64,000 nucleotides of DNA, from the NCBI RefSeq assembly GCF_001592935.1, contig NZ_LRDB01000051.1, positions 124,001-188,000 of the forward strand. The letters run 5' to 3'. Below, piece by piece: positions 34,262 through 35,128 of this stretch. The DNA is from Roseivirga echinicomitans (GTDB taxonomy: Bacteria; Bacteroidota; Bacteroidia; Cytophagales; Cyclobacteriaceae). The translations under genes and the position numbers were made by a program. The notes under the pieces were generated by a model, which searched no databases, had not been told where the DNA came from, and worked only from the letters and a program-made list of their open reading frames with translations. Each line of letters starts with the position of its first letter. The stretch's first letter is position 1.

Positions 34262-34336
34262 GGGCGCTTAGCTCAGTTGGTTCAGAGCACCTCGTTTACA
34301 CCGAGGGGGTCGGGGGTTCGAATCCCTCAGCGCCCA
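34262..34336 (+). tRNA. tRNA-Val (anticodon TAC)
   Basis: A 75-nt cloverleaf: acceptor GGGCGCT/AGCGCCC, D arm with GCTCAGTTGGTTCAGAGC, anticodon stem CCTCG/CGAGG around loop TTTACAC (anticodon TAC, reads GTA/GTN valine codons), and T arm CGGGGGTTCGAATCCCTC. The discriminator is A and CCA is not encoded. A consensus promoter precedes it and a hairpin terminator follows. Its 3' end is duplicated twice downstream, each time ahead of or behind a GIY-YIG gene. Confidence 0.95.
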
Positions 34337-34340
34337 CAAT

Positions 34341-34369
34341 AAGGCAGTCATTTATGGCTGTCTTTTTTT
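34341..34369 (+). terminator. tRNA-Val terminator (copy 1 of 3)
   Basis: GGCAGTCA and TGGCTGTC form an 8-bp stem with two G-U pairs around TTTA, followed by a run of seven T. The same hairpin recurs at about 34705-34735 and 35071-35099 as part of the tandem repeat. It lies only a few nt before the GIY-YIG start codon, so that gene needs read-through or another promoter. Confidence 0.7.
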
Positions 34370-34375
34370 GTGTTT

Positions 34376-34660
34376 ATGCACTACGTATATATTCTATATT
34401 CTCCATCAACAGACCGCTATTATATAGGCGAAACCGCCTTTGTATCAGGTCGTTTGGAGCAACATAACTCTGGCTTTTATAAGAATTCAGTAACAAAAAT
34501 CGCCTCGGACTGGGAGATGTTTTTAGAAATTGAATGTATTGACAGGACTCAGGCTTTGAGGCTTGAGCGATTTATTAAGCAACAGAAGAGCAGAAAATTC
34601 ATAGAGCGATTGAAGTCCGAGCCAAAAATAGTTGATGATCTTTTGTTAAGGTTTAAATAG
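34376..34660 (+). CDS. small GIY-YIG nuclease, tandem copy 1
   Basis: A 94-residue stand-alone GIY-YIG domain. The family motif appears as YVY (3-5) and YYIG (15-18); the conserved arginine is Arg26 in GRLEQH and a basic C-terminal helix (LERFIKQQKSRKFIERL) follows. I take the ATG at 34376: the upstream GTG giving MFMHY is a TTG in copy 2 and neither base is conserved. It starts 40 nt after the tRNA-Val 3' end and just beyond the tRNA terminator. Such proteins resemble small UvrC-N-like endonucleases; mobility or repair roles are possible. About 87 percent identical to copy 2. Confidence 0.85.
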   Translation: MHYVYILYSPSTDRYYIGETAFVSGRLEQHNSGFYKNSVTKIASDWEMFLEIECIDRTQALRLERFIKQQKSRKFIERLKSEPKIVDDLLLRFK

Positions 34661-34700
34661 GGTCGGGGTTCGCTCCGAAGCTTCGGAGCCTCAGCGCCCA
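34660..34700. repeat. duplicated tRNA-Val 3' end (degenerate copy 2)
   Basis: GGTCGGGGTTCG and CTCAGCGCCCA reproduce the variable-loop/T-arm and acceptor 3' strand of the tRNA-Val. The T-loop part is replaced by a 16-nt perfect palindrome CTCCGAAGCTTCGGAG at 34673-34688. The copy continues into the same terminator hairpin and GIY-YIG start. Confidence 0.8.
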
Positions 34701-34739
34701 CAATAAGGCAGTCATTTATGGCTGTCTTTTTTTTTGTTT

Positions 34740-35024
34740 ATGCACTACGTATATATTCTATATTCTCCATCAACAGACCGCTATTATATAGGCGAAACCG
34801 CCTTTGTATCAGGTCGTTTGGAGCAACACAATGGAGGTTTTTATAAGAACGCCAGTACCAAGTCTGCTTCGGACTGGGAGTTGTTTTTAGAAGTTGAATG
34901 TATTGATCGAAGTCAGGCATTGAAGCTTGAACGATTTATCAAGCAGCAGAAGAGCCGGAAATTCATAGAGCGATTACAATCGGAGTCAAAAATAATTAGT
35001 GATCTTTTGTTAAGGTTTAAATAA
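34740..35024 (+). CDS. small GIY-YIG nuclease, tandem copy 2
   Basis: A 94-residue paralogue of the gene at 34376 in the next repeat unit (period 364 nt). The first roughly 88 nt of coding sequence are identical between copies, after which both DNA and protein diverge (12 amino-acid differences in all, clustered after residue 32). Motifs YVY, YYIG and GRLEQH are intact. The 5' identity points to recent duplication or gene conversion anchored on the tRNA end. Confidence 0.85.
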   Translation: MHYVYILYSPSTDRYYIGETAFVSGRLEQHNGGFYKNASTKSASDWELFLEVECIDRSQALKLERFIKQQKSRKFIERLQSESKIISDLLLRFK

Positions 35025-35066
35025 GGGGTCAGGGTTCGCTCCGAAGCTTCGGAGCCTCAGCGCCCA
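35025..35066. repeat. duplicated tRNA-Val 3' end (degenerate copy 3)
   Basis: GGGGTCAGGGTTCG, the palindrome CTCCGAAGCTTCGGAG (35039-35054) and CTCAGCGCCCA repeat the arrangement of copy 2, 366 nt further on, and run into the third terminator hairpin. Confidence 0.8.
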
Positions 35067-35105
35067 CAATAAGGCAGTCAGAAATGGCTGTCTTTTTTTG
35101 TGTTT

Positions 35106-35128
35106 ATGCACTAGGTATATATTCGATC
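35106..35128 (+). pseudogene. truncated third GIY-YIG start
   Basis: ATGCACTAGGTATATATTC corresponds to the opening of the two GIY-YIG genes, but the third codon TAC has become TAG and homology fades within about 25 nt. It is a dead third unit of the tandem array. Confidence 0.65.

What the first reader, a model, noticed from the sequence alone, without database searches (positions are those of the whole stretch)
34262..35128. tRNA-Val followed by a tandem array of GIY-YIG nuclease genes, each unit carrying a copy of the tRNA 3' end and terminator
Units of 364-366 nt start with the last bases of the tRNA (CAGCGCCCA), the tRNA terminator and a 94-codon GIY-YIG gene. Two genes are intact and a third is a stub stopped at codon three. 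The 5' 88 nt of the genes are identical while the rest has diverged. This looks like a minimal element that re-creates the tRNA end when it inserts, like an integrative element reduced to a single nuclease, with duplications homogenised at the target-proximal end.
Basis: partly seen in the sequence, partly recalled or inferred. Interest (0 to 1): 0.75.

Follow-up and report, generated by a model that had tools for sequence, protein, structure and literature searches.

The report
One-gene nuclease elements parked on tRNAs
A tiny stretch of bacterial DNA that carries a single DNA-cutting enzyme gene sits between an intact transfer-RNA gene and broken copies of it; the same arrangement, matched to particular tRNAs, recurs in many bacteria and looks like a stripped-down selfish element that attacks tRNA genes without destroying them.

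Summary
In detail: tRNA-Val (34262-34337), then 364/366-nt units each with a terminator, a 94-codon GIY-YIG gene and a partial tRNA-Val 3' end, ending in an ORF stub. It is not a local oddity. In a Bacteroidota sample chosen by protein score, 81 of 89 loci lie within 400 nt of a same-strand tRNA; 0 of 227 hits have an opposite-strand tRNA within 600 nt. Nuclease lineages largely follow tRNA isotype (35 label changes, shuffled 92.7). Orthologous sites are occupied in some species, empty in others. The hairpins usually break the T-loop, which is the reverse complement of the published cut motif of phage homing endonuclease SegB, also GIY-YIG. Best reading: a minimal, integrase-less, tRNA-targeted homing element that leaves one tRNA intact and amplifies in tandem. 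Cleavage and mobility are inferred, not shown; the hairpin's role is unknown. Ten answered open-access literature searches (listings) showed no description.

The parts
34262..34337 (+). intact tRNA-Val(tac), host gene and presumed target; its T-loop GTTCGAATC is about 34316-34324
   Evidence: ARAGORN; T-loop position counted from the sequence
34341..34364 (+). terminator of tRNA-Val, first copy
   Evidence: consensus scan
34376..34660 (+). GIY-YIG nuclease ORF 1, 94 codons
   Evidence: Pfam PF01541 E 1.4e-11; dN/dS 0.14 against ORF 2
34660..34701 (+). partial tRNA-Val 3' copy 1, overlapping the ORF 1 stop codon
   Evidence: alignment, repeats
34673..34688 (+). 16-nt palindrome in the T-loop of partial copy 1
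34705..34728 (+). terminator, second copy
   Evidence: consensus scan
34740..35024 (+). GIY-YIG nuclease ORF 2, 94 codons
   Evidence: Pfam PF01541 E 2.4e-12; AlphaFold mean pLDDT 94.5
35025..35067 (+). partial tRNA-Val 3' copy 2
   Evidence: repeats, alignment of its 3' part; start read by eye
35039..35054 (+). 16-nt palindrome in the T-loop of partial copy 2
35071..35094 (+). terminator, third copy
   Evidence: consensus scan
35106..35128 (+). terminal ORF stub (stop at codon 3), end of the array
   Evidence: sequence, alignment

Best explanation
A minimal one-gene selfish element of the free-standing homing-endonuclease type, specialised on tRNA genes. SHOWN: in most linked cases a GIY-YIG nuclease ORF lies between an intact tRNA and a partial, usually hairpin-bearing copy of that same tRNA, in either order, and no opposite-strand case was seen; nuclease lineages largely follow tRNA isotype; sites are empty or occupied among relatives; units often form tandem arrays. 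INFERRED: the nuclease cuts an element-free tRNA gene in or near the T-loop or anticodon loop; repair from an element-bearing chromosome copies the ORF in together with its tRNA part, so one tRNA stays whole. The partial copy carries a hairpin at the presumed cut site, which would make it uncuttable. Breaks and recombination between the tRNA copies then expand, homogenise and collapse the array. The ORF is expressed from the tRNA's promoter, or by read-through of its terminator.
For: Linkage: 81 of 89 phylum-wide loci within 400 nt on the tRNA strand, 4 contig edge, 3 none, 1 without a qualifying ORF; in own and related genomes 42 of 49 loci with a high-scoring ORF, 6 none, 1 edge; of 40 lower-scoring hits (30-60 bits, mostly another subfamily) none near a tRNA, 2 near tmRNA (all). 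0 of 227 with an opposite-strand tRNA. Partial copy across the ORF in 121 of 176 linked ORFs against 6 of 176 in a null. Isotype clustering 35 changes against 92.7 shuffled, 0 of 200 as low. Presence/absence: tRNA-Asp 5 units in G321, none in 4 congeners that can be judged, a fifth contig ends at the tRNA, three of them with the same gene nearby; tRNA-Phe in Flavobacterium 1 of the 30 best-matching loci occupied; tRNA-Val 9 of 18. Hairpins: 125 of 137 partial copies; GTTCRA left in 35 of 137. SegB, a GIY-YIG homing endonuclease, cuts inside tRNA genes, has motif RAWTSGAAC in 23 of 83 cut sites (reverse complement GTTCSAWTY, the T-loop; my derivation) and is needed for tandem amplification of segB plus tRNA (PMC13096335). 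Invariant Y, Y, G, R, H, E. Purifying selection on the window's ORFs.
Against: No cleavage or transfer was observed. The intact resident tRNA keeps the presumed cut site; avoidance of self-cutting is unexplained here. SegB's motif enhances but is not strictly needed for cutting. The protein is a single 94-residue domain without the separate DNA-binding region of I-TevI-type enzymes. Part of the isotype clustering could be vertical descent at fixed sites; the tree has 81 columns and 14 starred of 120 inner branches, and Pro, Lys and Thr do not cluster well. The test whether the Roseivirga tRNA-Val sequences are one clade was inconclusive (p-AU 0.053). In 30 of 137 copies the T-arm is intact, so one SegB-like site does not fit all. 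55 of 176 linked ORFs gave no partial copy by my score. No match to the window protein in phages or plasmids, none confirmed in viral contigs, so no vector is seen. Similar hairpins occur elsewhere in the genomes, and in the own genome without excess over the control pattern.
Confidence: 0.58

Rival explanations
1. A resident nuclease that amplifies its tRNA locus, as SegB does in phage T6, kept because extra or altered tRNA sequence helps the host (for example against tRNA-cutting immunity or toxins), with little interallelic homing.
For: Tandem arrays, 26 of 89 loci with two or more units; SegB precedent.
Against: The amplified 3' copies are broken: 133 of 137 lack an intact T-arm or anticodon arm, some because the copy starts after it, so tRNA dosage should not rise. 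Patchy occupancy in one genus.
Confidence: 0.12
2. A passive lodger: any small gene that lands just outside a tRNA survives, and tRNA flanks are recombination hot spots; the duplicated tRNA ends come from ordinary slippage or integrase scars.
For: The sequence beyond the tRNA-Phe terminator differs widely among the Flavobacterium loci compared; tRNA ends are known integration sites (recalled; Williams 2002 seen only in reference lists).
Against: None of 40 lower-scoring GIY-YIG hits in the same genomes is near a tRNA; isotype-linked lineages; the same hairpin junctions in several genera.
Confidence: 0.13
3. An RNA-level system: the nuclease attacks its cognate tRNA, and the hairpin-bearing partial tRNA is a decoy or antitoxin RNA.
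For: Isotype matching fits tRNA recognition as well as gene recognition; recurrent hairpins inside partial tRNAs; ORF-less arrays could be antidote-only.
Against: The closest solved relatives include SLX1 and I-TevI, DNA enzymes (recalled; I-TevI); partial copies in the common arrangement usually lack the 5' acceptor strand; it does not explain terminator duplication or empty sites. Transcription of the partial copies was not tested.
Confidence: 0.08

Closest known systems
SegB and other Seg free-standing GIY-YIG homing endonucleases of T-even phages (PMC13096335: sections 9, 10 and 12 read, passages elsewhere; PMC2988022: passages only)
   Same: GIY-YIG, intronless, between genes, tied to tRNA genes, cut sites inside tRNA genes, needed for tandem repeats of tRNA plus endonuclease gene.
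   Different: Here chromosomal, a single 94-aa domain, isotype-linked lineages (that paper reports no isotype preference for SegB in phages), partial tRNA copies with hairpins; the window protein has no match in the phage collection.
UPF0213 / YhbQ-like small GIY-YIG proteins (PDB 1zg2, 1ywl; the name YhbQ is recalled)
   Same: Nearest solved relatives by sequence (E 1.7e-15), similar size and fold.
   Different: The lower-scoring 99-aa subfamily in the same genomes shows no tRNA linkage.
SLX1 structure-specific endonuclease
   Same: Sequence E 5.1e-9, Foldseek E 1.4e-2, probability 1.00; suggests branched or hairpin DNA as a possible substrate.
   Different: Eukaryotic repair enzyme with a second domain and a partner (recalled; Slx1-Slx4 in the entry titles).
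Integrase-bearing islands in tRNA genes
   Same: Rebuild the tRNA end; break points in the T-loop or anticodon loop (both recalled).
   Different: No integrase or second ORF in the units looked at; periods of about 300-450 nt.
Non-autonomous palindromic elements (MITE/REP-like; recalled)
   Same: ORF-less hairpin arrays.
   Different: Here each hairpin sits in a partial tRNA or 5S copy beside the intact gene.

Membership tests
GIY-YIG nuclease superfamily | Pfam PF01541 above cut-off | tested here: met
   45.0 and 47.4 bits, cut-off 22.6
GIY-YIG nuclease superfamily | conserved Tyr, Tyr-Gly, Arg, His, Glu | tested here: met
   Y5, Y16, G18, R26, H30, E64 invariant in 22 and 44 sequences; catalytic Arg and Glu are named in a passage, the rest is recalled
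GIY-YIG nuclease superfamily | fold | tested here: met
   model pLDDT 94.5; Foldseek against PDB: best 1zg2 E 4e-3, then SLX1, I-TevI 1ln0 E 0.37; none at E 0.001 or below
Free-standing homing endonuclease (Seg type) | intergenic, no intron or intein | tested here: met
   uninterrupted tRNA; only the tRNA in the Rfam search of L008, gathering threshold
Free-standing homing endonuclease (Seg type) | present or absent at orthologous conserved sites | tested here: met
Free-standing homing endonuclease (Seg type) | cleaves the element-free allele and is preferentially inherited | not testable with these tools
   needs biochemistry and crosses
Free-standing homing endonuclease (Seg type) | separate DNA-binding domain beside the GIY-YIG module (described for intron-encoded enzymes in passages; for Seg enzymes recalled) | tested here: not met
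   94 residues, one compact domain; so 'works like', not filed as a Seg member
Integrase-driven tRNA island | integrase gene inside the element | tested here: not met
   no room for one: only the GIY-YIG ORF in the window's units and in those printed
Integrase-driven tRNA island | copy of the tRNA end at the far side | tested here: met
   121 of 176 linked ORFs
Group I intron-encoded endonuclease in tRNA | intron interrupts the tRNA | tested here: not met
   tRNA intact; no intron family in the Rfam search
IS200/IS605 or REP/RAYT element | Y1 transposase in the element | tested here: not met
   no second gene-sized ORF in the unit; a trans-acting transposase elsewhere was not searched

The most novel reading that the evidence does not exclude
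A new class of bacterial mobile element: integrase-less tRNA-locus elements of about 0.3-0.45 kb in which an isotype-specific GIY-YIG nuclease and a cis-acting hairpin inside a partial tRNA copy are the whole machine, with MITE-like ORF-less derivatives mobilised or amplified in trans, spread over at least Bacteroidota, Balneolota, Rhodothermota, Verrucomicrobia, Kiritimatiellae and candidate phyla.
Probability: 0.35. Interest if true: 0.92.

Novelty: new variant of a known kind. Interest (0 to 1): 0.8.

Why it matters
If right, it is among the smallest self-spreading units in bacterial chromosomes and a third way, besides integrases and introns, to live in an essential RNA gene without killing it. 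It would give ready-made nucleases sorted by tRNA isotype, account for pseudo-tRNAs and some assembly breaks beside tRNA genes in Bacteroidota, and make it testable how a homing enzyme spares its own resident target. It would extend to bacterial chromosomes a nuclease-drives-tRNA-amplification logic shown for phage SegB.

Tried and rejected
Simple local duplication in one strain: rejected. Linkage of all GIY-YIG proteins to tRNAs: rejected, 0 of 40 hits scoring 30-60 bits lie near a tRNA. Phage or plasmid origin of the window protein: no match, none confirmed in viral contigs; PHROGs and PADLOC gave only weak partial hits, NCBIfam none. Horizontal transfer of the window's family between orders: suggested by Prolixibacter denitrificans (59 % identity; 22 of 24 nt alike around the hairpin although its tRNA is Phe), but the AU test was inconclusive (p 0.053). 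Hairpins as random genomic palindromes: TCCCGA..TCGGGA counts are 6-37 per genome in five genomes, against 0-6 for the reversed-pattern control; G000 itself shows no excess (7 against 6), so the pattern alone is not specific. Of 20 chosen hairpin regions, 5 proved tRNA- or 5S-linked; that choice favoured arrays. Covariation in the hairpins is only suggestive: Asp 0.97 Watson-Crick against 0.92 with shuffled partners (maximum 0.98), Ala 0.94 against 0.87 (0.96), GlyT 0.89 against 0.68 (0.92); only Phe, 0.95 against 0.83 (0.94), exceeds every shuffle; a fifth pattern (GlyA) was cut out of register and gave 0.33 against 0.31. DNA folding of the window's two partial copies is not exceptional (z -1.6 and -0.5), nor RNA folding (z -1.9 and -1.4).

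Bias: profile A1 was built from 22 proteins I chose, nearly all tRNA-linked, and loci were taken from its best-scoring matches, so linkage rates apply to that family, not to all GIY-YIG genes. Of the 89 phylum loci, 29 came and 60 I picked from its list. Some loci overlap (for example L005/L008, L011/L052, L141/L164) and were not removed; searches removed only identical protein plus identical distance. Searches used L001-L099 and L130-L219 only. From, whose list was itself cut, I fetched 60 regions chosen by hand, skipping UvrC-length and about 450-codon frames and some others. One search keeps only copies whose last 12 tRNA bases are found with at most 2 mismatches; it counts an arm as not intact also where the copy begins after it, and its hairpin count includes a few palindromes outside the tRNA part. 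In one search two of the five weakest cases rest on 15-18 residues at E about 0.001 (L111, L112), and two of the nine negatives have only 6 and 116 nt of sequence beyond the tRNA; the genus's 19th genome, with a diverged tRNA-Val, was left out.

Full report
WHAT IS THERE. The window lies in a genome of the Roseivirga group: genomes with the same genus code have contigs of the same lengths as R. ehrenbergii and R. spongicola contigs. tRNA-Val(tac) at 34262-34337 is followed by a terminator, a 94-codon GIY-YIG ORF, a partial copy of the tRNA 3' end, a terminator, a second ORF, a second partial copy, a terminator and an ORF stub. Each partial copy starts at or just after the ORF's stop codon and has the palindrome CTCCGAAGCTTCGGAG in its T-loop; the core of it occurs nowhere else in the window. 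The ORFs are 86 % identical in DNA, their first 89 nt are identical, and dN/dS is 0.14 (0.09 and 0.05 against the R. ehrenbergii copy), so they look kept as proteins. Pairs within other arrays gave 0.08 (G002), 0.36-0.83 (G013) and 0.34 (G010), with few changes; two more distant pairs were saturated.

NOT A LOCAL ACCIDENT. In the own genome 10 Pfam GIY-YIG matches include this pair, one 48 nt after tRNA-Ala and one 218 nt after tmRNA. The family recurs in 29 genomes (own included) and then in 296 of the phylum: 170 of 296 genomes and 94 of 140 genera have a match at E 1e-12. In the fetched loci of own and related genomes, 49 of 99 hold a short ORF scoring 60 bits or more: 42 have a same-strand tRNA or tmRNA within 400 nt, 6 none (two of these lie 548 and 602 nt beyond tmRNA), 1 is at a contig edge. 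Of 89 phylum loci, 81 have a same-strand tRNA within 400 nt (62 upstream, 15 downstream, 4 both), 4 are at contig ends, 3 have none and 1 has no qualifying ORF; 26 hold two or more units. Among 227 unique hits in L001-L099 and L130-L219 none has an opposite-strand tRNA within 600 nt. 60 of them have no tRNA within 700 nt: 35 low-scoring ones of the other subfamily, 17 distal array members or contig-edge cases, and 8 truly unlinked (my tally of the list). Of 79 named loci, 57 are linked, 9 are at contig edges, 12 unlinked and 1 without a qualifying ORF. They come from Flavobacterium, Niabella, Mucilaginibacter, Prolixibacter (over the limit because of a run of N), Balneolaceae, Rhodothermia, a Verrucomicrobia MAG, a Kiritimatiellae MAG, a Moranbacteria genome and others. 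MAG contamination was not excluded, but the Moranbacteria genome has 8 matches, 5 with a same-strand tRNA within 340 nt. As a control, 40 hits scoring 30-60 bits in the relatives show no tRNA within 400 nt; two of them sit near tmRNA.

TWO MIRROR ARRANGEMENTS. (a) Intact tRNA, terminator, ORF, partial 3' tRNA copy, terminator, next unit; the window is of this kind. (b) Partial 5' tRNA copy, sometimes with the promoter region, then ORF, next unit, and last an intact tRNA: tRNA-Ser L193, tRNA-Pro L219, tRNA-Leu L214. Either way the ORF lies between an intact and a broken copy of one tRNA gene. A partial copy on the far side of the ORF was found for 121 of 176 linked ORFs (88 of kind a, 33 of kind b); a null with unrelated sequence gave 6 of 176.

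HAIRPINS. In 137 distinct partial 3' copies the T-arm is intact in 30, the anticodon arm in 12, both in 4; 125 contain a foreign hairpin of six or more pairs; the motif GTTCRA remains in 35. The T-arm is altered in 36 of 36 Phe, 13 of 13 Asp, 8 of 8 Ser and 4 of 4 Thr copies and in all 9 Roseivirga Val copies; it is intact in 4 of 6 Met, 6 of 13 Ala and 5 of 7 other Val copies, where the anticodon arm is altered instead in most; no Ala copy keeps the anticodon arm. Copies that begin after the anticodon count as lacking it. Junctions repeat between genera, as in GGTCG-hairpin-AGTC for Asp and AGAGCG-hairpin-AGGTCA for Ala. Hairpin stems vary with pairing kept, but only the Phe set exceeds every shuffle. 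Hairpin plus partial RNA gene also occurs without any ORF: beside tRNA-Asn 11 units of 67 nt, tRNA-Pro 4 of 114, tRNA-Asp 5 of 90, the 3' end of a 5S rRNA gene twice, and tRNA-Gly once in the own genome.

SPECIFICITY. On a tree of 123 nuclease domains, tRNA isotype needs 35 changes; shuffles average 92.7 and none of 200 is as low. The ten tRNA-Leu rows, from five family codes and both arrangements, form one group (98), as do the six tmRNA rows (100). Pro (7 changes for 9 rows), Lys and Thr are scattered. With 81 columns many forks are unresolved, and vertical descent at fixed sites adds to the clustering.

GAIN AND LOSS. At tRNA-Val, 9 of 18 genomes of the genus with the identical tRNA (own included) have the ORF or a remnant. 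A tRNA-Asp locus with five units of 315 nt in G321 has none in four congeners; in a fifth the contig ends at the tRNA. In three of the four, G323, G325 and G327, the gene beside the empty tRNA is the one found beyond the array in G321, where one more ORF lies between. In Flavobacterium 1 of the 30 loci that best match the tRNA-Phe flank is occupied; 147 of 150 genomes had a match, and only those 30 were read. Homology of an occupied Flavobacterium locus with the empty ones ends 34 nt after the tRNA in most alignments, at the end of the terminator's T-run; some end earlier or slightly later. Since empty loci also differ from each other beyond that point, this marks a variable site, not a proven junction.

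MECHANISM. The protein is a compact GIY-YIG domain (pLDDT 94.5). Its nearest solved relatives are UPF0213, SLX1 and, distantly, I-TevI. The decisive parallel comes from print: phage SegB, a GIY-YIG homing endonuclease, cuts inside tRNA genes, has the motif RAWTSGAAC at 23 of 83 cut sites (it enhances but is not strictly needed), and with its catalytic residues is required for tandem amplification of segB plus tRNA (PMC13096335, sections 9, 10 and 12 read). The reverse complement, GTTCSAWTY, is the tRNA T-loop; that step is mine. It is present in the window's intact tRNA-Val and broken by the hairpin in both partial copies. I therefore favour a tRNA-targeted homing element whose partial copies are cut-resistant. 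Unsolved: how the resident intact tRNA escapes; the paper cites inefficient cutting of donor alleles for free-standing GIY-YIG enzymes. Whether the hairpin is cause, scar or a separate palindrome family is also open.

NOVELTY. Ten answered searches of the open-access library (one search was on integrase sites), seen as listings of at most 25 rows each, showed no paper titled or abstracted as describing chromosomal GIY-YIG genes tied to tRNAs, nor hairpin-bearing partial tRNA arrays with them. Passages of four further papers were seen. Subscription papers and preprints are not covered. It works like Seg-type homing; it is not filed as a Seg enzyme because the separate DNA-binding domain is missing.

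Noticed in passing
   Followed up: partly
L224:423-770: The 3' end of a 5S rRNA gene with its terminator is repeated twice downstream, each copy with a TCCCGA..TCGGGA hairpin; no GIY-YIG ORF in the 1.1 kb fetched.
   Followed up: partly
L003, L075, L079, L082, L084, L087 (Roseivirga group): A separate 77-80 aa GIY-YIG family sits about 180-250 nt downstream of tmRNA (about 550-600 nt in L077 and L085); six of these form one group in the tree.
   Followed up: partly
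L114, L115 (G005, G012): tRNA-Val 3' end plus terminator duplicated downstream of the intact tRNA without any GIY-YIG ORF found.
   Followed up: no
L103, L107, L111 (G007, G004, G014): Assemblies break 82-171 nt after tRNA-Val, inside the nuclease ORF, as expected of an unresolved tandem array.
   Followed up: partly
L264:1060-1880: In the Flavobacterium tRNA-Phe array even the loop of the copied terminator hairpin holds a TCCCGA..TCGGGA palindrome, while the terminator of the intact tRNA does not.
   Followed up: no
L253:1880-1910 and window 35106-35128: Arrays in Prolixibacter and in the window both end in an ORF start that soon runs into a stop, so a short stub may be a regular terminal feature.
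   Followed up: no
L100, L104, L112: A recurring motif (TTTGTATTTGCAG.AGTGGTCTCG..GGGATCACCG.AG.TAATCC, read by eye, with variations) follows the tRNA-Val terminator in some congeners without an intact element; nature unknown.
   Followed up: no
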